Below, one piece after another: positions 8,693 to 44,543 of a DNA stretch of 64,000 nucleotides. Source of the stretch: Succinispira mobilis DSM 6222 (GTDB lineage Bacteria > Bacillota > Negativicutes > Acidaminococcales > Succinispiraceae); NCBI RefSeq assembly GCF_000384135.1, contig NZ_KB913028.1:124001-188000 (forward strand), written 5' to 3'. The position numbers and the translations under genes were made by a program. The first letter of the stretch is position 1. Every line of letters starts with the position of its first letter. The notes under the pieces were generated by a model. That model saw nothing but the letters and a program-made list of their open reading frames with translations. It was not told where the DNA came from and did no database searches.

Positions 8693-8944
8693 TTACTTAA
8701 TGAATGGGTTAGCCATAACAAGTACAATTGCTATAACTGATGCGATAATTGGAATAGACTCAACAAGACCGATAGCAATAAGCATGTTGATTTGAAGATT
8801 GCTTACTTGCTCTGGTTGTCTAGACATTGATTCTAAAGCTTTAACTGCAACAGCAGCATCCCCTTTAGTTGCGCCCATTACAGCAGCAACCATGATAACA
8901 GCAGCAGCTAATACTGAAGAAGCAATAATAATAGCGTTTTCCAC
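8693..8944 (-). CDS. atpE: ATP synthase Fo c subunit (rotor ring proteolipid)
   Basis: The c subunit (83 residues) forms the ion-carrying ring. Two membrane helices flank the polar loop RQPE at 42-45, and the ion-carrying Glu is E62 in the motif LVESIP, followed by Ser63. Compared with the family, the helix-1 glycine ladder (GxGxGxGxG) is mostly replaced by Ala/Val/Thr (AAAVIMVAAVMGATKGDAA), with Asp29 at the place of the Gln found in Na+-type rings. Glu-Ser in helix 2 is shared with Na+ rings but the helix-1 Gln is absent, so I do not assign the coupling ion. Confidence 0.95.
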   Translation of the reverse strand: MENAIIIASSVLAAAVIMVAAVMGATKGDAAVAVKALESMSRQPEQVSNLQINMLIAIGLVESIPIIASVIAIVLVMANPFIK

Positions 8945-26528: not shown

Positions 26529-26575
26529 TGTTTTTTACCTATTCCCCTTTACTAGCCCCCATGTTAAAACCTGCC
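26529..26575 (-). repeat. Accessory-locus repeat R, copy 1 (partial)
   Basis: About 47 bases matching the right-hand half of a longer repeat at 28993-29086 and 39781-39876 (shared core CCTTTACTAGCCCCCA...GTTAAAACCTGCC). Like the other two copies it lies at or just beyond the 3' end of a candidate immunity gene. No coding potential. Confidence 0.7.
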
Positions 26576-26590
26576 CTCAAATTCTATTAA

Positions 26591-27189: not shown

Positions 27190-27227
27190 AAAATGGCCCT
27201 AACAAAAATCTGTTAGGGCTATTTTTA
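27190..27227 (-). terminator. Terminator after tpsB
   Basis: GCCCTAACA / TGTTAGGGC stem with A and T runs on both sides, overlapping the tpsB stop codon; probably bidirectional. Confidence 0.85.
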
Positions 27228-28931
27228 TATTTGACAAGTAATTTGAAATCCTAATGCTGTTTTTGCGGTTTTAAAACCTTTAGGTTTGTGCAAGGGCGCA
27301 CCGATAAAGGCATCATAACTGATGTTTTTTCCAACTGTGCCTCTTATCCCTACTACTGTGCCCATCAAACTGTTGCCTAGCAAATACTCTGAGGCCGCCC
27401 CCCATACTCTACCACAATCTAAACCAATATATGGCTCTAGACTACTATTTGCTAGAGGTATGCTTATTTCATTTCTTATTATTATTCCATTTTCAGCCAG
27501 CAAACTTTGTTCACCATCAAATCCTCTTACGCTATATCTACCACCAATACTAATTTGTTCACTGCTATACAGCGCATCTTTGGTGTATTGCCCCTTGATA
27601 TTTAAATTATAGCGACCTTTTACTTTCCCTAATTTCAAAGGCTTAGCTAGATTTAGACTTGCTGACCACAAACTATAACGCGTTGTCAGTTTCCCAGCTT
27701 CAGTATCCGTCAAACCTGGTGCCGCACCAAACCAAGGCACACCTTTTTGATAATAAATTATCGTATCTAGCGTGCTTTCGCCAATATATTGCCGATGTTG
27801 CACCCCTAATTGATATGCTGTAGTTTCTTGTCTTTGTACCCCTATTTCTGTATCATTTATATAACTATGGCGATCTTTTTGAATAATTTTAACAAACCCT
27901 TGGTATTTACGCACTTGATCGCGATATAACAACCGTTTTAATTCAATTTCTAAGGTATCTGATTTACCACTAGAAATAAAGGGCGTTAAATTATTTACCC
28001 GTTGATGATACCGATTTTGATATTTATTGATGCTCAAACTATAATTGCCATAAGGTATGCTGTAATACAAGCTATAGCCTTTATTGCTAGCCGTAGGTAT
28101 TTGTTCTTTGAAGTAATAATCATTTAGGCTATAACTTAACACATCATTTAGTCCGCTTGGATTATATAAGTTAAAGCTACTAGTTGCCTGCATTCTTCCC
28201 ATATGTTCTAAACCTGCATCATCTAGCGAAACCGCTATACTCCAAGGCTTACTGCGTGTTACCTGTATTACTACCTCAGTGTCACCTAACTTTGCTGCGG
28301 GTACTAGTTGCATTTTTACATCTTGATTGGGTACCCGCTTCATTTGTTCTAAACCTTGTTCTAAATCTCGCACATTTAAAATTTTGCCTGCTTTAGTTGG
28401 AAACGCATTTCTCCAAGTTCCCGCTTGTTGTTCCTGGTCAAAACGAATTTTGCTTATTTTCCCAGCAATTAACTGTAGCTCTAGCCTGCCTGTACTTAAA
28501 TCTTGCTCTGGCACTACGATTTTACTTGTAACAAAACCTCTGCCCATTATTTTATCTTGAGCATATTTAGCTAAAATATTTATGCCCTGTACCCCTAATT
28601 TCCTATTTACATACTTTTGCAAATCTTTTTCTAACCAAGCGAATTTCCTAGCTTGTTCGCCAGTTATTACTATTTTGTTGACTGGAAACATGATCTTTTC
28701 TTCAGGAAATTGCAAACTTTCAATATCTGCCTTTGACTTTTGTAAATTCACTTGTGGCTCTTGTAATCGCTTTTGCTCTTCTTCTTGTTGCCTTTTTAAT
28801 TCTTGTTGCCGCTCAATTTTATTGCGTAATATTTCTTGAGTAGCCACGTCGTTCGTACTAGGCGCGGCTATACAACTACTAGCTCCCGCAATTAGTAGCC
28901 CCAAAACTATTAATACTGTTTTTATTCCCAC
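27225..28931 (-). CDS. Two-partner secretion outer-membrane transporter (TpsB; ShlB/FhaC/CdiB family)
   Basis: A 568-residue Omp85-family protein that would export a TpsA/CdiA partner across the outer membrane. Order: signal peptide (1-23, ending in ...SSCIAA), a Gln/Glu/Lys-rich coiled-coil (about 31-70), POTRA domains (about 75-215) and a 16-stranded barrel (about 220-568). The barrel contains the lid-lock motif VRGF at 468-471, the family hallmark. Presence of this protein shows that the cell has an outer membrane. No intact TpsA is visible in the window: the nearest candidate (40355-44543) lacks the TPS domain. A repeat (R copy 2) and the immunity cluster lie upstream on the same strand. 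Confidence 0.93.
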   Translation of the reverse strand: MGIKTVLIVLGLLIAGASSCIAAPSTNDVATQEILRNKIERQQELKRQQEEEQKRLQEPQVNLQKSKADIESLQFPEEKIMFPVNKIVITGEQARKFAWLEKDLQKYVNRKLGVQGINILAKYAQDKIMGRGFVTSKIVVPEQDLSTGRLELQLIAGKISKIRFDQEQQAGTWRNAFPTKAGKILNVRDLEQGLEQMKRVPNQDVKMQLVPAAKLGDTEVVIQVTRSKPWSIAVSLDDAGLEHMGRMQATSSFNLYNPSGLNDVLSYSLNDYYFKEQIPTASNKGYSLYYSIPYGNYSLSINKYQNRYHQRVNNLTPFISSGKSDTLEIELKRLLYRDQVRKYQGFVKIIQKDRHSYINDTEIGVQRQETTAYQLGVQHRQYIGESTLDTIIYYQKGVPWFGAAPGLTDTEAGKLTTRYSLWSASLNLAKPLKLGKVKGRYNLNIKGQYTKDALYSSEQISIGGRYSVRGFDGEQSLLAENGIIIRNEISIPLANSSLEPYIGLDCGRVWGAASEYLLGNSLMGTVVGIRGTVGKNISYDAFIGAPLHKPKGFKTAKTALGFQITCQI

Positions 28932-28992: not shown

Positions 28993-29086
28993 TCATCTAA
29001 GCCAAATTTCTAAAAAACCAATATTGCAACTGAAACAATGTTTTTTCACCTATTTCCCTTTACTAGCCCCCATGTTAAAATCTGCC
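28993..29086 (-). repeat. Accessory-locus repeat R, copy 2
   Basis: About 94 bases, near-identical to 39781-39876 and partly to 26529-26575. It begins TCATCTAAGCC and ends in the last codons of the 134-residue membrane gene. It lies between that gene and tpsB. Function unknown; perhaps a recombination seam or conserved 3' untranslated sequence. Confidence 0.8.
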
Positions 29087-29479
29087 AAAAAACTTCATCA
29101 ACAAGGTTACGCCAATTAGCAATGTAATTATTCCCTTTGTCTCAGTTTTTATTTTCTTAAGCGCTTCTTGATTATCTTCGACTATGGCTAACTTATATTG
29201 TCCATACAAAGTGCTACCTATTGCTAACACAAATACTATTGTTCTTATAACTTCTATTGCCCACATGCTATCTGTAGGAATAACCAGCCCTAACGTTCTT
29301 GCATACTCCAACTTTAACAATACCTCTACTGCCAAGAACAATCCTGACAAACTCCATAAAAAAGTCCCTATCTTTACGATTACACCGATTTCTTTATTTT
29401 TATATTCTTTAAATATCCAAAAGTTATTAACCAAAAAACTAGCGATTCCTAATAATACAAGGCCTTCATATATTTTCAT
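29075..29479 (-). CDS. Multi-pass membrane protein, candidate immunity (copy next to tpsB)
   Basis: 134 residues with about four hydrophobic helices. I do not recognise a named family. It is clearly homologous to 30160-30591: both have FWIFKEYKNKEI / YWLFKEYKNKEI, a conserved LSGLF/LSGLL helix and LYGQYK/I-x-A-x-x-ED(N/D)QE. Each lies just downstream of a 186-residue GW protein, so the two genes form a repeated pair. The Y-G-x-x-K...DD-x-x-x-E pattern also recalls the 155-residue protein at 39888-40355, hinting at one superfamily. An immunity role is inferred from context only. Confidence 0.6.
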   Translation of the reverse strand: MKIYEGLVLLGIASFLVNNFWIFKEYKNKEIGVIVKIGTFLWSLSGLFLAVEVLLKLEYARTLGLVIPTDSMWAIEVIRTIVFVLAIGSTLYGQYKLAIVEDNQEALKKIKTETKGIITLLIGVTLLMKFFGRF

Positions 29480-31186: not shown

Positions 31187-33319
31187 CTACAGCTCTTTGC
31201 CTGTACGATTTCCTATATATGATGTTATTGTTATTCCGCCATTAGCCCCAACACTGCCAGTTATATTATTTGCTGAAGCTGTATAACCTCGAGTAATTAT
31301 TACATTGCCATTTCCTGCTAAACTTACACCTCCATCAAGAACTGTAATATTTGCTGAGCCGCTAACTCCTACACCAATTAATGTGTTTATCTGTTCAAGC
31401 CGATCTTCTACATTTTCTTCATCAAAATTTTTTTTGGGATTTTTTATAAACATTTTTCCCTCTCCATATGATAAATCCCTTCCATTTATAATTTTTTCAA
31501 TTCCGGAAAATTCAATAAATTTTTTATCTTTCCCATAGGATAGTTTGACTTCTTGAAACGTATCCCCGTCGGAATTTATTGATAAAGTTATGGTTGCACC
31601 AAATCCAGCTATATTCACGCCCGTACTTACATAATAAAGTTCGCCTTTGGGCAGACTTTCATAATTATAATTATTTAATGCTTTTTGCAAAAATTGCGGT
31701 GCAATAACTTTCTGATCAACTACTATTTTGCCACCATCTGCGCTAAGATATACTTTGCTACCATTGATATCTACGCCTACAAGTTGCGGAATATAAACTT
31801 TTTCCCCATTAACTTCTATTGGATTCTCATCTTTATGAGCTGCAAACCAAGCGGCCTCTTGAGCTGCATCTATTTTTTGGTTTTCATAATAAGTTTCTAA
31901 TGCATTGCCTCTATTAGCTACCGCTTGGCAATCCTCTAGGAGTTTTTCATACTGATCCAGGGTTAGATAATTATTCTTCGTGCCACTAGCTGCGGTACTT
32001 GCTCCTGTTTGGGCATTACCACCTACTACTTTGGCGGCGGTTGCACCAATTATCGCACTTGCCCATTGGTGTAAATCTGGCTTGTTTTTAAATGTTTTGC
32101 TTAATTTGTCTTGGACAGCTTCATTTAAGCCTGCACCTACTGCACCAGCAAAACCATTGCCCCCACCCAAGTCTGCCATCACCCCACCAACAATGCTATG
32201 TAGGGCTATTTTATTGCTACCACCTTCCGACCATGCCGCAACTTGGGCTTGAAGTTCTTTTATTTTTTTATCATCTTGTGGCTTCTTATCTTGCGCAATT
32301 GCTAAAGCAACTTGGGCTTTCGTTAATTCTTTTACCGAAAGTTTATGTACTTGTTCATAGGCTAGTTCACCAAACATCTTGGCTAATTCTTGCCGTTCTT
32401 GGATAGTTTTTTTGTCGAAAATTTTCCCTAGTTGATTTAAGCTTCCTTTTGTATCGCGACTTAAATTACTTAAATCTTGGTTAGGGTTATCTCGAACTTC
32501 TATTGTCCCTGGGGCAATTGCTGCTTTAGTAGTAGATTGGGCTTTACCTTCTGCCCCAATTCCAATTGCTGGCGTTATCCCTTTTTCGTTATATTTGGCA
32601 TCACCACTGGTATTAACATTTATGCCCATACTGCTAGCCTGATATTCCGCTTTATTGTCAATATCGCTATAACTTAATGTGCCTGTTGACAATTTGTTTT
32701 TCTCAGCTGTAGCTTCACTGGCAATTACTGCACCTTTTAGATCAGTATTCTTGCCAACTTGGATATCAAACCCTGCTTGGCCAGCATAAATACCTGCTTG
32801 TTCGGTTACACTTTGATAATCTGAGTTGATTTTTCCTTTGTTAACCCCACCTGTGATCGCGCCTTTGCCTAAGTTGCCCGTAGGTTTTACTTTAGCGCTT
32901 ACCCCTATTGAAGCCCCTTGGTTTTCTTCTTTATAGCTTTCTTTGGTTTGTAGACTAGCTATCTCTAAGTTACCACCGACTTTAGCTTGTACTTGCTCTG
33001 CTGTGGCTTGAGAGCCAATTACTTGTAGGTCTTTGCCAGTTTCTAGTGCTAATTTGTCGGTTGCAGTTATTTGACTTGCGGTATAGCTCGTACCATTTTC
33101 TTTGATTTTGCCTTGTTGTTTGGCTGCGGCTAAATTTACGCCACTAATACCGCCCACACCTACTTCTACCCCAATACTTGCCGAACTAGTTTGGCTGTTA
33201 CTGCTACTAGTATTGCTATTGGTGCCTGCTAAGATTTGGATATTTTCTTGGGCTTTTAAACTAATATTTTTACCGCTTAACTCTGAGCCTTGGACTTTGC
33301 TATCTGAACCAAAACACAA
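31187..33319 (-). pseudogene. TpsA/CdiA-like C-terminal module C (5'-truncated, orphan cassette)
   Basis: A 710-codon open frame with no credible start (TTG without ribosome-binding site). From VQGSELSGKN it copies the FHA-2 repeat region of the copy at 40355-44338; the match begins sharply near 33296. The pretoxin-like region (LHQWASAIIGATAAKVVGG...GTKNN) ends about residue 450, and the last 260 residues are the variable tip. The tip has a DQYEKLLEDCQAVANRGNAL start, a conserved middle (VYIPQLVGVDINGSKVYLS) and a glycine-rich hydrophobic end (GNGNVIITRG...GGITITSYIG). It is related to tip B but diverges in the last 150 residues. Probably silent unless recombined onto an expressed N-terminus. 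Confidence 0.8.
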
Positions 33320-34205: not shown

Positions 34206-34345
34206 AAATACGATCTCGACTTGGACTTGCGTTGCTCGCTCTAGCGGTTGTGCTACTTATTGTACTTTACTTACTAAGCCTCCACCTAGGCCGATACTTA
34301 TGCCACTTTGTTTGTTTTCTTGCTGTTCTTTACTGCTATATTCTG
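34206..34345 (-). pseudogene. Fragment of the tpsA-like gene (scrap 1)
   Basis: About 140 bases that match 38549-38690 and 42442-42583 of the two long copies at roughly 95% identity (the region coding SKEQQESKQSGLSIGLGGGL). It is isolated between candidate immunity genes, in no relation to the native gene order. It ends sharply on both sides. Confidence 0.8.
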
Positions 34346-34403
34346 CCTGCGCATCTATAATGTATATATTTTTGACTTTAGTCCCATTGCCATATTTATA
34401 TAA

Positions 34404-34856
34404 TTATGTTTCTTCAAATACAGTGATAAACATTTCTCCATCATTTTCCTCAAACACTTCTACTTTAATTAAGCGTTCAGGAAATCTATTCTTAAAGCTC
34501 ATACCCCAAAACAGTACTAAAACATCTCCAAGCGCCTTAATTTGAGATTCCAGGTTTCCATCATCTTGAGTTTTAAGATGAAAAAAATCTCTCAATTGAT
34601 ATAAATTCATCATTTTTTCTATGCAACTTTTTTCTCCTTTACATTCATCTCTCCAAAGTTCATATAATTCTTCTGAAAACTTATCTTTTAATAAAATACA
34701 ACCATCTACTTCAACAATTTCAGGATAATATAATTTTGCAAATCCTAGTGCAGTCTGCAAATCCGACTTTAGATTTACATAATTCCACCAACTAAAATTT
34801 TTTGGATTGGCATTTCTCCATTTAATAAATTCCGAAATTAAATTATCTTTAAACAT
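34404..34856 (-). CDS. Soluble hypothetical protein, candidate immunity (unrelated to GW group)
   Basis: 150 residues without a membrane helix. Trp- and Phe-rich N-terminus (SEFIKWRNANPKNFSWWNYV), then an acidic, mostly helical middle and the ending VEVFEENDGEMFITVFEET. Acidic soluble proteins of this size are common as immunity partners of cytoplasmic toxins. It is bracketed by two scraps of the tpsA-like gene (34206-34345 and 34905-35085) and has no toxin of its own. I do not recognise a named family. Confidence 0.6.
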   Translation of the reverse strand: MFKDNLISEFIKWRNANPKNFSWWNYVNLKSDLQTALGFAKLYYPEIVEVDGCILLKDKFSEELYELWRDECKGEKSCIEKMMNLYQLRDFFHLKTQDDGNLESQIKALGDVLVLFWGMSFKNRFPERLIKVEVFEENDGEMFITVFEET

Positions 34857-34904
34857 TTCTATTCACTATGCTCCCCTCTTGCCTATTCTTCCACTTTCTA
34901 TCCG

Positions 34905-35085
34905 CTTAACTCTGAGCCTTGGACTGTTAGATCACCTGCTGTCGCGGTAATTTCTAGATTTTCTTGGCTTTGAAGGCTACTACCTTGACTTACTTGGCTA
35001 TAGCTTTCGCTGTTACTGCTACTTTTGCTTGTTCCTAAACTAATATTTAGCTTTAAATCCCGACCTGTTGTATCTGCTAGTTTAT
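34905..35085 (-). pseudogene. Fragment of the tpsA-like gene (scrap 2)
   Basis: About 180 bases nearly identical to 42209-42380 of the long copy (coding region around SYSQVSQGSSLQSQENLEI and GDLTVQGSELSG). This exact stretch is deleted in the copy at 36420-39713, so the scrap derives from a copy of the 40355-44338 type. It directly precedes the 150-residue gene. Confidence 0.8.
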
Positions 35086-35846: not shown

Positions 35847-36407
35847 TTATTTTCTAGAATTATCATAAATTACTTTTACATTCATTATCGTTTTACCTCT
35901 AAGATGTTTTACTTTTTCATATTGAGCATTATCGACAAATTTATAGCTTAATATCAGTTTACCTTTTACATAAACATTTTCACTATTGCTATCTTGTTGC
36001 CAACCGTGGGCTTCTAGGACATATTTATATGTTTTTTTAAATTCATCTTCAGTTTTATCCGCATAGTATATGGCCTCTAATTCTCTACCGCCGCCATAGT
36101 AGGAATGTATCTTGAAAAGTTGACGTCTTATGCCAAAATCTCGCCCATCTACCAAATTTTTTTGCGCTTCAATTTTGGCTGAATTATCCACACCCTCAAG
36201 TTGCAAACTATATATTTCTTTAAACCCAACCAAACGTGCTTCCTTTCTTATTAATTCCTCTTTTTCTATTGCCCCATTCATATTTTTTAGTTCTGTCTTT
36301 AATGTCGACACTAACATTATCGTGAAAACTACTGCCAAAACGTAACAAGTTATTTTCCACGATCCTCTGGTAGCGAATGTATATCCGCCGATAACAAGTT
36401 TTCCCAT
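35847..36407 (-). CDS. One-TM 'GW' protein, candidate immunity to tip B
   Basis: 186 residues, identical over the first 50 to the copy at 29499-30059 and nearly so at the C-terminus. The membrane helix is at about 20-40, and the HGW and KGKLILSYKF blocks are conserved. Differences to its paralogues are concentrated in EELIRKEARLVGFKEIYS and DFGIRRQLFKIHSYY, so these are likely the specificity surface. It starts 12 bases after the stop of the 1097-codon tip-B frame, the classic immunity position. Confidence 0.75.
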   Translation of the reverse strand: MGKLVIGGYTFATRGSWKITCYVLAVVFTIMLVSTLKTELKNMNGAIEKEELIRKEARLVGFKEIYSLQLEGVDNSAKIEAQKNLVDGRDFGIRRQLFKIHSYYGGGRELEAIYYADKTEDEFKKTYKYVLEAHGWQQDSNSENVYVKGKLILSYKFVDNAQYEKVKHLRGKTIMNVKVIYDNSRK

Positions 36408-36419
36408 TATTTTCTCCCC

Positions 36420-39400
36420 CTATAGTTCTTTACCTTCAACATTTCTCACATATGAGGTTATTGTTATTCCCCCTCCAATGCCTGCACCGTCTATTGAAGC
36501 TGTACTGCCTTCAGTAAGTATTACATTGCCATTTCCAGCGAAACTAATACTTAAATCCGCACTCATCATATTTCCTGAAAAATTCACCCCTACACCTGTC
36601 ATTGTATTTATCTGCTCATGCCTATTTTCTACATTGGGTTGCTCTTCCATATTTTTCAATGATTTTTTTATAACCATCGTACCATCACCATATGAAAAAC
36701 CAAACTCCTTAATCGCTTTTGAAATTTTAGAAAACTCAATTGCGCTAACTCCTTTACTATAGGAGAGTTTAACTTCTTGAAACGTATCCCCATCGGAATT
36801 TATTGATAAGGTTATGGCTACACCACATCCAGCTATATTACCACTCGTACTTACATAATAAAGTTTGTCTTTGGGCAGACCTTTGTAATTATAATTATTT
36901 AATGCCTGTTGCAAAAATTGCGGTGCAATAACTTTCTGATCAACTACTATTTTGCCACCATCTGCGCTAAGATATACTTTGCTACCATTGATATCTACGC
37001 CTACAAGTTGCGGAATATAAACATCTCTACCATTAACTGATACTGGCTCCTCATTTTTATGTTCTGCAAACCAAGCAGCCTCTTGAGCTGCATCTATTTC
37101 TCTATTCTTATAATAAACTGCTAATGCATTGCCTCTATTAGCTACCGCTTGGCAATCCTCTAGGAGTTTTTCATACTGATCCAGGGTTAGATAATTATTC
37201 TTCGTGCCACTAGCTGCGGTACTTGCTCCTGTTTGGGCATTACCACCTACTACTTTGGCGGCGGTTGCACCAATTATCGCACTTGCCCATTGGTGTAAAT
37301 CTGGCTTGTTTTTAAAGGTTTTGCTTAATTTGTCTTGGACAGCTTCATTTAAGCCTGCACCTACTGCGCCAGCAAAACCATTGCCCCCACCTAAGTCTGC
37401 CATCACCCCACCAACAATGCTGTGTAGGGCAATTTTATTGCTGCCACCTTCCGACCATGCCGCAACTTGGGCTTGAAGTTCTTTTATTTTTTTATCATCT
37501 TGTGGCTTCTTATCTTGCGCAATTGCTAAAGCAACTTGGGCTTTCTTTAATTCTTTTACCGAAAGTTTGTGTACTTGTTCATAGGCTAGTTCACCAAACA
37601 TCTTGGCTAATTCTTGCCGTTCTTGGATAGTTTTTTTGTCGAAAATTTTCCCTAGTTGATTTAAGCTTCCTTTTGTATCGCGACTTAAATTACTTAAATC
37701 TTGGTTAGGATTATCTCGAACTTCTATTGTCCCTGGGGCAATTGCTGCTTTAGTAGTAGATTGGGCTTTACCTTCTGCCCCAATTCCAATTGCTGGCGTT
37801 ATCCCTTTTTCGTTATATTTGGCATCACCACTGGTATTAACATTTATGCCCATACTGCTAGCCTGATATTCCGCTTTATTGTCAATATCGCTATAACTTA
37901 GCGTGCCTGTTGACAATTTGTTTTTCTCAGCTGTAGCTTCACTGGCAATTACTGCACCTTTTAGATCAGTATTCTTGCCAACTTGGATATCAAACCCTGC
38001 TTGTCCAGCATAAATACCTGCTTGTTCGGTTACACTTTGATAGTCTGAGTTGATTTTTCCTTGGTTAACCCCACCTGTGATCGCGCCTTTGCCTAAGTTA
38101 CCCGTAGGTTTTACTTTAGCGCTTAGCCCTATTGAAGCCCCTTGATTTTCTTCTTTATAGCTTTCTTTGGTTTGTAGACTAGCTATCTCTAAGTTCCCAC
38201 CGACTTGGGCTTGTACTTGCTCTGCTGTGGCTTGAGAGGCAATTACTTGTAGGTCTTTGCCACTTTCTAGTGCTAATCTGTCGGTTGCAGTTATTTGACT
38301 TGCGGTATAGCTCGTACCATTTTCTTTGATTTTGCCTTGTTGTTTGGCTGCGGCTAAATTTACGCCACTAATACCGCCCACACCTACTTCTACCCCAATA
38401 CTTGCCGAACTACTTTGGCTGTTACTGCTACTTTTGCTTGTTCCTAAACTAATATTTAGCTTTAAATCCCGACCTGTTGTATCTGCGGTTTTTAAATCTT
38501 GTAGCTTATCTACCGCTTTATAGGCATAGAGTGCTTGCAAGCGTTTATCTTGGACTTGCGTTGCTCGCTCTAGCGGTTGCGCTACTTCTTGTACTTTACT
38601 TACTAAGCCTCCACCTAGGCCAATACTTAGGCCACTTTGTTTGCTTTCTTGCTGTTCTTTACTGCTATATTCTGCCTGCGCATCGGTAATATTTACTTGG
38701 CTACCACTAATTTTTAGGTCTTTGCCTGCTTTTATATTACTAGCTTGCACTGTTACTGCCGCTTGGCTTTCAATGTCTACGGTTCCTTGGACACTACCAA
38801 CTACACTTCCTAAATTGGTCGTTTCTCCCTGTTGGTAGGCATTTTTATTACTTTGTTTCCCTAGCGTGATGTTTAGTCCACTCGTAAATAGGCCGGATTT
38901 TTTCTCTTGCGTATGGCTACTACTTACCAGTTTTTCTTGTCCAGCCTCAATTACTATACCTTTATCTGCTTTTAATTGTACATCTTGCTCCCCAACTACA
39001 TTACTCGCCTGAATTTGAATGGTCTCTTGGGCTTGTAGTTGAACTGTTCCGCCTGACAAAGTACTAGCACTTAAACTTTGTTGGCTACTAGTTTGCTGTA
39101 CGTCTTTGCTAGATTTAGAAAACATTCCCGCTTTGCGACTGCTTTCTTGACTACTACTGCTAGTGCTATTTTGACCAGCTTTTATTTTTATCTGCTCCGT
39201 TGCTTGGACTTTCAGCTCTTGTTCAGCCGTTATTTGGCCTTGTTCAACCGCAACATTTTGTCCTGTTATGCTGATATTTTTTCCTGCTAAATTGCTGGCA
39301 ATACTTTCGCTGGCTTGTAAACTTTGATTAGTGCGTGTCGTTATTTTACTACCGCCACCGCTTTTACCTGTATTTAAGTGATTTTCTTGTACTTGTACTT

Positions 39401-39707
39401 GTGTTTTGCCAGCTTGAATAGTCACGTTTTTTTCTGCTTGCAATGTTAGTTGTTCAGAACTGCCGACATTACTCGCACGAATTTCTAAATTCTCGCCCGC
39501 TTTTATTTTTAAATTGCCAGCTGCCACTACCTGACTGCCTATTTCTTGACTAGTATAGTCTTGGCGTTTATTATTTGCATCCCATTCCAGATTATGCCCT
39601 TCGGCTACAGTCACTGTGCTAATTTTTACTTGGCCTTGGGCGGTTAAATCTGCACTACCTGCACTTTGCACATTACTAGCTTTTAAGTTCAAATCACGTC
39701 CTGCTTT
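36420..39707 (-). pseudogene. TpsA/CdiA-like C-terminal module B (5'-truncated, orphan cassette)
   Basis: A long open frame without a credible start (TTG, no ribosome-binding site). Up to about residue 835 it repeats the FHA-2 and pretoxin body of the 40355-44338 copy at near identity at the DNA level. Homology stops at 39707. Relative to that copy it lacks 62 residues between two SSSNS repeats, a likely slip or recombination between short repeats. The tip (last about 258 residues, after GTKNN) is related to tip C but differs strongly in its last 150 residues (ending GGGITITSYVRNVEGKEL). Followed 12 bases later by its GW gene. Probably a silent donor cassette. Confidence 0.82.
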
Positions 39708-39780
39708 AAGCAAATTTGAACTAATCTAAGTCGCCAAACAATAATTTGTTTTATCTGCAAATTAACACTGTATTACATAA

Positions 39781-39876
39781 TCATCTACGCCAAATTTCTA
39801 AAAAAACCAATATTGCAACTAAAACAATGTTTTTTCACCTATTTCCCTTTACTAGCCCCCACAGTTAAAACCTGCC
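39781..39876 (-). repeat. Accessory-locus repeat R, copy 3
   Basis: About 96 bases nearly identical to 28993-29086. It lies just after the stop of the multi-pass gene at 39888-40355 and before the broken 5' end of module B, i.e. at a cassette border. Confidence 0.8.
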
Positions 39877-39887
39877 CTCTCTAATGC

Positions 39888-40355
39888 TTAAGACAAATAC
39901 AAAAAAATTATATATACACATATTGCTAAAAATAAAGTCAATGTAAAATATGCTTTTTTTAAAGACGATGATAACCTTTTGTACTCTTCTATTAGATCTT
40001 TACTGGACTTATCATCTTGCATTTTTAGATACACTAACTTTCTTCTACCATAAATGGTTAGCGTTGCCCCAAAAATTAACATTGCTATATGATACAACTC
40101 AAATTCAATATAATTAAAATAAGATAGTGCAAATGCTATGATGCTAATTATTAGCATCAGCATGCCTAAAATAAAATTCCACATATATTTTTTTTCATGA
40201 TAATATTTTTTGTCTAAATTATCAAAAAACACCTTGAAAAATTCATGAAAAACTACAATAAATGACCAAATTATTAACCACCTCTTCGGTATTACTTGTA
40301 TCAGCACCAAAAATAGCATTACCAGTGTTCCAAAACCAATTAAATATCGTAGCAC
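39888..40355 (-). CDS. Multi-pass membrane protein, candidate immunity to tip A
   Basis: 155 residues with four to five hydrophobic helices (about 4-22, 27-43, 60-82, 85-103, 135-153) and a charged loop YGRRKLVYLKMQDDKSSKDL. Its start overlaps the stop of the large tip-A frame by one base, the position expected of an immunity gene. A frameshifted paralogue lies at 26591-27048. A fully membrane-embedded partner suggests that tip A attacks the inner membrane. No named family recognised. Confidence 0.68.
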   Translation of the reverse strand: MLRYLIGFGTLVMLFLVLIQVIPKRWLIIWSFIVVFHEFFKVFFDNLDKKYYHEKKYMWNFILGMLMLIISIIAFALSYFNYIEFELYHIAMLIFGATLTIYGRRKLVYLKMQDDKSSKDLIEEYKRLSSSLKKAYFTLTLFLAICVYIIFLYLS

Positions 40356-43300
40356 TATTTATCACCATTCCTTCTATCAAAATCCTTTATAATTTCACGA
40401 AATTTTTTGCCTGTTGCATCACCTAACATTCCGCATCCAATATTAATACCTACTCTTGTTCCATATATAATGACCATCGCAGTTCCAACTGTATTTTCTA
40501 TTTTCAATGCATTAGAAAATACTTCCCCTGCTCCATATCCTGCTACATCAGATATCACGGCAATACCAAAATCTTTTCCGCTATGTTTCTTGGAATCTTC
40601 ATTTATAACAATCATCAAATTTAATCTCCCAACAGGACCATCTATACCAGTAGCTTTTGATAAAACACTATCTGGTATTGTCGTCGCTGTATTTATAATA
40701 AGGGATTCTTTATCAATAAGATCTCCAAGTTTCATATTCTCCTTATATTCATAGGTAATTGTTCCATCAGGTTGCGTGACAATTATTGTATTTTTATCTA
40801 GTCTGGCCTCAGCCAATGCATCTATATAGTACCTGTTACTCTCTGTCAAAATTTCATAATCAGATGCACCGTTTTGAGCTAAAATTTCCTCATCCAAGTT
40901 ATTATTCTTCGTGCCACTAGCTGCGGTACTTGCTCCTGTTTGGGCATTACCACCTACTACTTTGGCGGCGGTTGCACCAATTATCGCACTTGCCCATTGA
41001 TGTAAATCTGGCTTGTTTTTAAAGGTTTTGCTTAATTTGTCTTGGACAGCTTCATTTAAGCCTGCACCTACTGCGCCAGCAAAACCATTGCCCCCACCCA
41101 AGTCTGCCATCACCCCACCAACAATGCTATGTAGGGCTATTTTATTGCTGCCACCTTCCGACCATGCCGCAACTTGGGCTTGAAGTTCTTTTATTCTTTT
41201 ATCATCTTGTGGCTTCTTATCTTGCGCAACCGCTAAAGCAAATTTCGCTTTCGTTAATTCTTTTACCGAAAGTTTATGTACTTGTTCATAGGCTAGTTCA
41301 CCAAACATCTTGGCTAATTCTTGCCGTTCTTGGATAGTTTTTTTGTCGAAAATTTTCCCTAGTTGATTTAAGCTTCCTTTTGTATCGCGACTTAAATTAC
41401 TTAAATCTTGGTTAGGGTTATCTCGAACTTCTATTGTCCCTGGGGCAATTGCTGCTTTAGTAGTAGATTGGGCTTTACCTTCTGCCCCAATTCCAATTGC
41501 TGGCGTTATCCCTTTTTCGTTATATTTGGCATCACCACTGGTATTAACATTTATGCCCATACTGCTAGCCTGATATTCCGCTTTATTGTCAATATCGCTA
41601 TAACTTAACGTGCCTGTCGACAGTTTATTTTTCTCCGCTGTAGCTTCACTGGCAATTACCGCGCCTTTTAGATCAGTATTCTTGCCAACTTGAATATCAA
41701 ACCCTACTTGGCCAGCATAAATACCTGCTTGTTCGGTTACACTTTGATAGTCTGAGTTGATTTTTCCTTGGTTAACCCCACCTGTGATCGCGCCTTTGCC
41801 TAAGTTGCCCGTAGGTTTTACTTTAGCGCTTAGCCCTATTGAAGCCCCTTGATTTTCTTCTTTATAGCTTTCTTTGGTTTGTAGACTAGCTATCTCTAAG
41901 TTACCACCGACTTTAGCTTGTACTTGCTCTGCTGTGGCTTGAGAGCCAATTACTTGTAGGTCTTTGCCACTTTCTAGTGCTAATTTGTCGGTTGCAGTTA
42001 TTTGACTTGCGGTATAGCTCGTACCATTTTCTTTGATTTTGCCTTGTTGTTTGACTGCAGCTAGATTTACGCCACTAATGCCGCCCACACCTACTTCTAC
42101 CCCAATACTTGCCGAACTACTTTGGCTGTTACTGCTACTAGTATTGCTATTGGTGCCTGCTAGGATTTGGATATTTTCTTGGGCTTTTAAGCTAATATTT
42201 TTACCGCTTAACTCTGAGCCTTGAACTGTTAGATCACCTGCTGTCGCGGTAATTTCTAGATTTTCTTGGCTTTGAAGGCTACTGCCTTGGCTTACTTGGC
42301 TATAGCTTTCGCTGTTACTGCTACTTTTGCTTGTTCCTAAACTAATATTTAGCTTTAAATCCCGACCTGTTGTATCTGCGGTTTTTAAATCTTGTAGCTT
42401 ATCTACCGCTTTATAGGCATAGAGTGCTTGCAAGCGTTTATCTTGGACTTGCGTTGCGCGCTCTAGCGGTTGCGCTACTTCTTGTACTTTACTTACTAAG
42501 CCTCCACCTAGACCGATACTTAGGCCACTTTGTTTGCTTTCTTGTTGTTCTTTACTGCTATATTCTGCCTGGGCATCGGTAATATTTACTTGGCTACCGC
42601 TAATTTTTAGGTCTTTGCCTGCTTTTATATTACTAGCTTGCACTGTTACTGCCGCTTGGCTTTCAATGTCTACTGTTCCTTGGACACTACCAACTACACT
42701 TCCTAAATTGGTCGTTTCTCCCTGTTGGTAGGCATTTTTATTACTTTGTTTCCCTAGCGTGATGTTTAGTCCACTCGTAAATAGGCCGGATTTTTTCTCT
42801 TGCGTATGGCTACTACTTACCAGTTTTTCTTGTCCAGCCTCAATTACTATGCCTTTATCTGCTTTTAATTGTACATCTTGCTCCCCAACTACATTACTCG
42901 CCTGAATTTGAATGGTCTCTTGGGCTTGTAGTTGAACTGTTCCGCCTGACAAAGTACTAGCACTTAAACTTTGTTGGCTACTAGTTTGTTGTACGTCTTT
43001 GCTAGATTTAGAAAACATTCCTGCTTTGCGACTGCTTTCTTGACTACTACTGCTAGTGCTATTTTGACCAGCTTTTATTTTTATCTGCTCCGTTGCTTGG
43101 ACTTTCAGCTCTTGTTCAGCCGTTATTTGGCCTTGTTCAACCGCAACATTTTGTCCTGTTATGCTGATATTTTTTCCTGCTAAATTGCTGGCAATACTTT
43201 CGCTGGCTTGTAAACTTTGATTAGTGCGTGTCGTTATTTTACTACCGCCACCGCTTTTACCTGTATTTAAGTGATTTTCTTGTACTTGTACTTGTGTTTT

Positions 43301-44338
43301 GCCAGCTTGAATAGTCACGTTTTTTTCTGCTTGCAATGTTAGTTGTTCAGAACTGCCGACGTTACTCGCACGAATTTCTAAATTCTCGCCCGCTTTTATT
43401 TTTAAATTGCCGGCTGCCACTACCTGACTGCCTATTTCTTGACTAGTATAGTCTTGGCGTTTATTATTTGCATCCCATTCCAGATTATGTCCTTCGGCTA
43501 CAGTTACTGTGCTAATTTTTACTTGGCCTTGGGCGGTTAAATCTGCACTACCTGCACTTTGCACATTACTAGCTTTTAAGTTCAAATCACGTCCTGCTTT
43601 AATTTGCAGCTTGCCGTTATTTGCCGCTACTTCTACGCTACTTACACTAGCAATATTGCGTACTTGACCTTGGGCATTGCGTTGCTCATTTACCGTACTT
43701 TCTAAATTTACATCGCCTCCCGCCTCAAGTGTAATTTGTTGCGTTGCTAAGATTTTGCCCCCACGATTATTAAAATCTTCTACCGCTTTAATTGCGATTT
43801 CCGAGCCTTGTATTTTGCCACCGTTATTATTAATATTAGTGGCCGCCAACTGCAACTTGTCTTTAGCGACAATTGTTCCTTGGTTTAAAATTTCATTAAC
43901 TACTTTAAAATCTATTTCTTGAGCGCCAATTACAGCATTGCCTTGCGCCCCTTTGCTACTATCAGCTTGCAAGTATACCTGTGGTACTAAGGCTTTCACT
44001 ATTTTGCCATCTGGCAAGAGCACTTCTTTTTCTACTAACCACACAATATCTTGTTTTAAGTTTTGTAATTGCGTTGCCGTCAGTGCTACGCCTAGTTGTG
44101 CACCGCTACTTTGCCCAAATTTCACAGCATTTTCCATTAGTCCTTGGTATTGTGCTTGGGCATCTTGGTAAGTCCCTAGATATTTTTGCCCAGTTATCGC
44201 CATAACTTGTTCATTTACTAATTTTTGCTCATAAAACCCATCCCCTAATTTTTTGTGCGTTACGTCAGGGTCATATTTTAGTTGCTCTTGAAAATAGTCG
44301 GAAGATAACCAAGTTTTATAATTAAATAACCGGCGCAA
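40355..44338 (-). CDS. TpsA/CdiA-like protein, body and tip A (lacks TPS and FHA-1 domains)
   Basis: A 1327-codon frame beginning LFNYKTWLSSDYF...DVTHKKLGDGFYEQKL, then GVALTATQLQNLKQDIVWLV and VLVPQVYL-like KALVPQVYL, blocks known from CdiA proteins just before the FHA-2 repeats. Residues about 150-1000 are FHA-2-type repeats (KAGRDLNLKASN, LEIRASNV, Ser/Gln-rich linkers). A pretoxin region ends in GTASGTKNN-like ASGTKNN, at the place of the VENN motif. The last about 185 residues are tip A, with a hydrophobic glycine-rich end (GTAMVIIYGTRVGINIGCGML) suggesting membrane action. The apparent TTG start at 44338 has no ribosome-binding site; the frame looks like the downstream half of a gene whose signal peptide is at 44322-44543, joined out of frame. 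Confidence 0.82.
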   Translation of the reverse strand: MRRLFNYKTWLSSDYFQEQLKYDPDVTHKKLGDGFYEQKLVNEQVMAITGQKYLGTYQDAQAQYQGLMENAVKFGQSSGAQLGVALTATQLQNLKQDIVWLVEKEVLLPDGKIVKALVPQVYLQADSSKGAQGNAVIGAQEIDFKVVNEILNQGTIVAKDKLQLAATNINNNGGKIQGSEIAIKAVEDFNNRGGKILATQQITLEAGGDVNLESTVNEQRNAQGQVRNIASVSSVEVAANNGKLQIKAGRDLNLKASNVQSAGSADLTAQGQVKISTVTVAEGHNLEWDANNKRQDYTSQEIGSQVVAAGNLKIKAGENLEIRASNVGSSEQLTLQAEKNVTIQAGKTQVQVQENHLNTGKSGGGSKITTRTNQSLQASESIASNLAGKNISITGQNVAVEQGQITAEQELKVQATEQIKIKAGQNSTSSSSQESSRKAGMFSKSSKDVQQTSSQQSLSASTLSGGTVQLQAQETIQIQASNVVGEQDVQLKADKGIVIEAGQEKLVSSSHTQEKKSGLFTSGLNITLGKQSNKNAYQQGETTNLGSVVGSVQGTVDIESQAAVTVQASNIKAGKDLKISGSQVNITDAQAEYSSKEQQESKQSGLSIGLGGGLVSKVQEVAQPLERATQVQDKRLQALYAYKAVDKLQDLKTADTTGRDLKLNISLGTSKSSSNSESYSQVSQGSSLQSQENLEITATAGDLTVQGSELSGKNISLKAQENIQILAGTNSNTSSSNSQSSSASIGVEVGVGGISGVNLAAVKQQGKIKENGTSYTASQITATDKLALESGKDLQVIGSQATAEQVQAKVGGNLEIASLQTKESYKEENQGASIGLSAKVKPTGNLGKGAITGGVNQGKINSDYQSVTEQAGIYAGQVGFDIQVGKNTDLKGAVIASEATAEKNKLSTGTLSYSDIDNKAEYQASSMGINVNTSGDAKYNEKGITPAIGIGAEGKAQSTTKAAIAPGTIEVRDNPNQDLSNLSRDTKGSLNQLGKIFDKKTIQERQELAKMFGELAYEQVHKLSVKELTKAKFALAVAQDKKPQDDKRIKELQAQVAAWSEGGSNKIALHSIVGGVMADLGGGNGFAGAVGAGLNEAVQDKLSKTFKNKPDLHQWASAIIGATAAKVVGGNAQTGASTAASGTKNNNLDEEILAQNGASDYEILTESNRYYIDALAEARLDKNTIIVTQPDGTITYEYKENMKLGDLIDKESLIINTATTIPDSVLSKATGIDGPVGRLNLMIVINEDSKKHSGKDFGIAVISDVAGYGAGEVFSNALKIENTVGTAMVIIYGTRVGINIGCGMLGDATGKKFREIIKDFDRRNGDK

Positions 44339-44543
44339 CTGCTCCTTCGGCGTAGTTATTTATTTCCCCGCCCGCTAAAGCAATTTCGTCGGCATATATT
44401 TTACCCGTATTTTTATCCACTTCGACTTGGGATTGTTCTGCTAACACTGTACTTGAAAAAATTGGCTGTAGTACTAAATTTGCTACTAAGCCCCAAAGGG
44501 TTAACTTGGTCTGCCAGTTTTTTGAGTTGCTTTTTAAAAACAT
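44322..44543 (-). pseudogene. TpsA-like N-terminal fragment (signal peptide) frameshifted from the body
   Basis: 73 codons with a good ATG (AAGGAG upstream): a long TpsA-type signal peptide (KLTLWGLVANLVLQPIFSS, cleavage near TVLAEQ) and about 38 further residues (VDKNTGKIYADEIALAGGEI, resembling an FHA repeat rather than the start of a TPS domain). The frame stops at 44322 while the body continues in another frame from about 44338. Normally several hundred to a thousand residues (TPS domain, FHA-1) separate these parts. So this is a deletion with frameshift, or an assembly collapse of the repeats. Confidence 0.8.

What the first reader, a model, noticed from the sequence alone, without database searches (positions are those of the whole stretch)
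44322..44345. Leading tpsA/cdiA copy lost its TPS and FHA-1 domains and is frameshifted at the join
A good start and signal peptide (44322-44543) are followed after only about 38 residues by a sequence that normally lies more than a thousand residues downstream (NYKTWLSSDYF...), in another frame. Without a TPS domain the protein cannot be taken up by TpsB. Either the locus is degenerate, or the internal repeats were collapsed in assembly, or another tpsA exists elsewhere to which these cassettes can be joined.
Basis: partly seen in the sequence, partly recalled or inferred. Interest (0 to 1): 0.6.

Follow-up and report, generated by a model that had tools for sequence, protein, structure and literature searches.

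The report
Beheaded CdiA toxin-delivery gene, recently broken
The first gene of a bacterial contact-killing (CDI) locus has lost, through two separate deletions, the parts needed to export and aim its toxin and is out of frame at the second join, so this strain seems to keep its toxin/immunity cassettes and outer-membrane exporter without a working delivery arm: an ordinary, probably recent, gene decay.

Summary
The 73-codon ORF 44543-44322(-) is a TpsA/CdiA signal peptide, about 10 residues of the mature TPS N-terminus, and about 28 residues of the last FHA-1 repeat. There are two junctions, not one: J1 (about 44409, in frame) removed TPS and nearly all FHA-1; J2 (about 44325) removed the rest of FHA-1 and the receptor-binding equivalent and shifted the frame. 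The 1327-codon body (44338-40355) starts at the YP-like domain (NYKTWLSSDYF) and keeps FHA-2, pretoxin and CT. In 62 evaluable relatives 56 have TPS and this domain in one ORF and 6 have a frame break; none has this fusion. The single-contig genome holds no complete TPS domain: its only hit, at 667 kb, is a paralogue relic cut at both ends. TpsB is intact but partnerless. The missing DNA is nowhere else and the junction is unique, so repeat collapse is unlikely, though no reads were available. Copies of the body differ mainly at silent sites (dN/dS about 0.08; lead-specific 4 N: 12 S), so the loss is probably recent. Best reading: a genuine, recent pseudogene of a known kind of system.

The parts
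44439..44543 (-). Signal peptide of the TpsA/CdiA (codons 1-35, MFLKSNSKNWQ...STVLA)
   Evidence: weak similarity to the signal peptide of the 2763-aa TpsA of G008 (36% over 28 aa, E 0.69)
44409..44438 (-). About 10 residues read as the mature TPS N-terminus (EQSQVEVDKN); J1, the in-frame join, follows
   Evidence: cf. ADKNA.., VDPQAP.. starts of TPS domains; boundary inferred
44325..44408 (-). Remnant of the last FHA-1 repeat (TGKIYADEIALAGGEINNYAEGAVAPVI)
   Evidence: 23.2 bits vs at most 7.1 in 2000 shuffles; same motif in about 50 relatives
44322..44327 (-). J2, out-of-frame join between ...GTTATT and TAATTATAAA...; stop codon TAA 44324-44322 of the lead frame
44336..44347 (-). Possible accidental internal start: AAGGAG (44347-44342), 3 nt, TTG (44338-44336), in the body frame
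   Evidence: sequence reading only, spacing short
40355..44338 (-). Headless CdiA body, 1327 aa: YP-like domain (from 44323), FHA-2 repeats, pretoxin ending SGTKNN
   Evidence: (PF13332 E 7e-58)
40358..40894 (-). Variable C-terminal (CT) region of the leading copy, no family match
   Evidence: (identity with the other cassettes ends at KNN)
39888..40355 (-). Putative immunity gene of the leading CT (155 aa, membrane-like)
   Evidence: by position
36420..39713 (-). Orphan cdiA fragment 2 (1097 aa, no proper start), 822 codons homologous to the lead with 48 nt differences
35847..36407 (-). Putative immunity gene of orphan 2 (186 aa)
   Evidence: by position
34212..35083 (-). Decayed cdiA fragments with internal stops (34212-34397, 34883-35083)
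31187..33319 (-). Orphan cdiA fragment 3 (710 aa)
27225..28931 (-). TpsB/CdiB (568 aa, POTRA_2, POTRA_3, ShlB): intact but without a partner

Best explanation
This is a CDI (two-partner secretion) locus in the Burkholderia-type order cdiA-cdiI-orphan cassettes-cdiB. Two real deletions in the leading cdiA have beheaded it: J1 fused the signal peptide and TPS tip in frame to the last FHA-1 repeat, and J2 fused that repeat out of frame to the YP-like domain, removing the receptor-binding-domain equivalent. The lead peptide (73 aa) would at most enter the periplasm. The 1327-aa body is not translated, or only as a cytosolic product from a chance internal start. CdiB then has nothing to export, so the strain is disarmed; the downstream immunity genes may still protect it. 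Shown: the fusion, the frame, the absence of any complete TPS in the genome, the intact CdiB, the silent-site bias. Inferred: that the joins are biological, that the loss is recent, that immunity is still expressed.
For: Lead and body frames. Last-FHA-1 stub. 56 of 62 evaluable relatives carry TPS and the YP-like domain in one ORF. The closest relative, G003 (55% identity), keeps TPS in frame. No complete TPS in the genome. The lost middle part is absent. Only one ShlB-type TpsB; the second hit is a BamA-like protein. Older decayed cassette pieces in the same array. dN/dS 0.0055/0.073 lead vs orphan 2 and lead-specific 4 N: 12 S, P = 7e-5 under neutrality point to a recent loss. Domain order and export role of TPS: PMC9086364, PMC8510554.
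Against: The body is still an open frame over 1327 codons and its changes look constrained, as if the protein were in use; the same bias in the orphans shows that this test cannot separate 'recently dead' from 'kept by recombination'. Two deletions leaving an ~84-nt stub is less simple than one. No reads or sister strains could be examined.
Confidence: 0.8

Rival explanations
1. Assembly or sequencing artefact: part of the repetitive cdiA was dropped, and an indel error adds the frameshift.
For: cdiA arrays with 98% identical cassettes are hard to assemble; G000 is one contig of unknown read type.
Against: The junction DNA is unique in the genome, so there is no repeat across which to collapse; no copy of the lost part remains; both joins are between non-homologous sequences; the long ORFs of neighbouring operons are intact; the 98%-identical cassettes themselves were resolved.
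Confidence: 0.1
2. Silent reservoir: the headless lead and the orphans are kept as cassettes that can be joined by recombination to an intact cdiA arriving from other strains or present in part of the population.
For: Silent-site bias in all three copies; recombination of orphan modules onto cdiA is documented (PMC3150448); CdiB is retained.
Against: No acceptor cdiA in this genome; selection on a reservoir cannot be told from recent loss.
Confidence: 0.07
3. A working two-frame gene: ribosomal frameshifting in the overlap 44359-44325 makes a signal-peptide/YP/FHA-2/CT protein with a periplasmic role.
For: The frames overlap by about 11 codons and there is an SD-like AAGGAG upstream.
Against: No known +1 slippery codon before the stop (AUU UAA); the product would lack TPS and RBD, so CdiB could not export it; not seen in relatives.
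Confidence: 0.03

Closest known systems
CDI loci (cdiA/cdiI/cdiB), Burkholderia-type order with orphans between cdiI and cdiB (PMC9086364)
   Same: CdiB with POTRA domains, YP-like and FHA-2 domains, a conserved pretoxin edge followed by a variable CT, small genes after each CT, orphan modules before cdiB
   Different: The leading cdiA lacks TPS, nearly all FHA-1 and the RBD equivalent; the pretoxin edge reads SGTKNN rather than VENN or ELYN
Orphan cdiA-CT/cdiI modules (Poole et al. 2011, PMC3150448)
   Same: cdiA fragments without translation start, nearly identical to the main gene upstream of the CT, each followed by an immunity-like gene
   Different: The leading copy keeps the true cdiA start and signal peptide but is itself reduced almost to an orphan
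Frame-broken tpsA genes in relatives (G012, G014, L032, L065, L070, L087, L093, L094)
   Same: The reading frame is broken within the TpsA
   Different: There the TPS domain remains upstream in another frame; nothing comparable is deleted

Membership tests
Functional CDI / TpsA exoprotein | N-terminal signal peptide | tested here: met
   (by sequence inspection; no predictor was run)
Functional CDI / TpsA exoprotein | TPS domain (PF05860) following the signal peptide in frame | tested here: not met
   no TPS in the window; the genome has one partial TPS, at 667 kb
Functional CDI / TpsA exoprotein | FHA-1 filament and RBD before the YP domain | tested here: not met
   only a ~28-residue stub of the last FHA-1 repeat remains; 310-627 aa normally lie between that motif and the YP-like domain
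CDI locus (as a remnant) | YP-like and FHA-2 region | tested here: met
CDI locus (as a remnant) | Conserved pretoxin edge and polymorphic CT | tested here: met
   copies near-identical up to SGTKNN, then unrelated; no VENN
CDI locus (as a remnant) | Immunity gene after each CT | tested here: inconclusive
   small ORFs in the right place, no family match
CDI locus (as a remnant) | Cognate TpsB/CdiB | tested here: met
Functional CDI / TpsA exoprotein | Contact-dependent growth inhibition | not testable with these tools
   needs co-culture

The most novel reading that the evidence does not exclude
The headless leading cdiA is not dead weight: body and orphan cassettes are kept under selection, either as a recombination reservoir for incoming or population-level intact cdiA genes, or because a short TPS-less product has a role inside the producing cell. 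This would be an 'immune but disarmed' CDI state that can be re-armed.
Probability: 0.08. Interest if true: 0.5.

Novelty: new member of a known kind. Interest (0 to 1): 0.25.

Why it matters
It is a dated snapshot of how a contact-killing system is lost: the delivery arm goes first (TPS, filament, receptor-binding part), while exporter, toxin tips and immunity genes remain with coding sequences not yet decayed. It also shows that annotating a genome as CDI+ from cdiB and CT/immunity cassettes alone can be wrong. Two same-genus relatives carry independent frame breaks in near-identical tpsA genes, so loss of delivery may recur in this order; this is suggestive only.

Tried and rejected
Programmed frameshifting: no slippery site, and the product would lack TPS. 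Phase variation at a homopolymer: the join has no long tract. Moved, not lost: the 667-kb TPS fragment was considered as the missing head, but it carries its own YP-like domain (40% identity) and aligns best with another TpsA subfamily. IS-mediated deletion at the window locus: an IS3-family element truncates the 667-kb relic and has other copies in the genome, but none is near the window joins. Microhomology at J1/J2: cannot be judged without the ancestral sequence; an 11-nt inverted repeat flanks the stub (44320-44330/44355-44365) but may be chance. The viral-contig scan found no relative. PADLOC and NCBIfam gave no toxin or immunity assignment.

Full report
Observation. On the minus strand an ATG ORF with an AAGGAG ribosome site runs 44543-44322 (73 codons). 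It begins with a signal peptide and ends in TAA. The next frame is open from 44359 to 40355; from the TTG at 44338 it gives 1327 aa starting LRRLFNYKTWLSSDYF.

What the lead contains. Relatives with the same post-FHA-1 domain were found in the order and as 80 named loci in bacterial genomes. In most of them a conserved last FHA-1 repeat (GTGRIYGDHVAIGATTLNN..ENGVAPVIAARxRLDIGA) lies 310-627 aa (median 379) before the YP-like domain. The last ~28 residues of the window's lead match a profile of that repeat at 23.2 bits, against a best of 7.1 in 2000 shuffles. So the lead is signal peptide + ~10 residues read as the TPS tip + last FHA-1 repeat, and there are two junctions. J1 (about 44409) is in frame. 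J2 (about 44325) is not: it joins ...GTTATT to TAATTAT..., which an out-of-frame deletion explains. If the ancestor resembled the closest relative (G003, L025, 55% identity; first-residue positions AATVVVPD 30, GRIYGTQ 430, APVIAAR 452, NYKNYLSS 752), about 390 + 296 aa, or about 2 kb, are gone. By the published order SS-TPS-FHA-1-RBD-YP-FHA-2-PT-CT (PMC9086364), J2 removed the receptor-binding region. Equating NYKTW... with the YP domain is my inference from that order.

How unusual. Of 66 loci whose ORF does not run off the 5' end of the stored DNA, 56 have TPS in the same ORF, 6 have TPS upstream in another frame (L032, L065, L070, L087, L093, L094), and 4 lie too near an edge or cannot be judged (L031, L039, L044, L061). 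No evaluable locus has a signal peptide fused near the YP-like domain. Two same-genus relatives (G012, G014) have near-identical tpsA genes, each broken at a different place.

Is there another TpsA? The genome is a single 2,085,243-bp contig, 98.4% complete. PF05860 and a profile of relatives' TPS domains both find only C1:667230-667724. That ORF (667227-669518) lacks a signal peptide and the first third of TPS, begins right after a gene end, and stops in a 1270-bp IS3-family element (inverted ends L011:7467-7507 and 8696-8736), with no tpsA sequence beyond it. It is a different paralogue. The only ShlB-type TpsB is the one in the window; the second, weak ShlB hit is a BamA-like protein. CdiB is therefore intact but without a partner.

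Artefact? The 401 bp around the joins occur once and the lost FHA-1/RBD stretch has no near copy elsewhere (best E 0.07). Collapse needs a repeat, and none is there. Long ORFs of the neighbouring operons (Rnf, ATP synthase) are intact. Reads were not available, so this rival keeps 10%.

When? Lead and orphan 2 share 822 homologous codons with 48 nt differences, dN 0.0055, dS 0.073. In 383 codons shared by three copies, lead-specific changes are 12 silent and 4 replacement; with 74% replacement expected under neutrality this has P = 7e-5. Orphans 2 and 3 show the same bias (10:4 and 6:3). Most divergence therefore arose while the sequences encoded working protein, and the loss of the head is late. 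Caveats: small counts, and gene conversion among copies.

Mechanism and verdict. CdiB recognises the TPS domain (PMC8510554); without it the product cannot be exported. The strain is most likely disarmed, perhaps still immune: orphan immunity genes are expressed in E. coli EC93 (PMC3150448); here that is untested. This is a recent pseudogene within a known kind of system. The possibility that the cassettes serve as a reservoir is not excluded but not needed.

Noticed in passing
L011 (G000:C1:667227-669518): Relic of a second, different tpsA (partial TPS, FHA-1, start of the YP-like domain), cut at the 5' side near the end of a CobN-like gene and at the 3' side by an IS3-family element that has further copies in the genome.
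   Followed up: partly
L027:6922-15210 (-), genome G008: A 2763-aa TpsA with two TPS-like domains in one ORF (about residues 45-300 and 690-930).
   Followed up: no
L028:5326-12667 and L029:5577-12937: Near-identical tpsA genes of two same-genus genomes are each broken by a frameshift at a different position, as if TpsA inactivation recurs in this order.
   Followed up: partly
window 26531-26590, 29042-29101, 39831-39890: Repeated ~60-110-bp intergenic element (CACCTATTTCCCTTTACTAGCCCCCA...) at ends of toxin/immunity modules, perhaps module boundaries.
   Followed up: no
window 36420-40900: The pretoxin edge in this locus reads SGTKNN (SGMKNN in L026) rather than VENN; CTs and neighbour ORFs match no family.
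   Followed up: partly
window 44320-44330 / 44355-44365: An 11-nt inverted repeat flanks the FHA-1 stub at J2; could be chance in AT-rich DNA.
   Followed up: no
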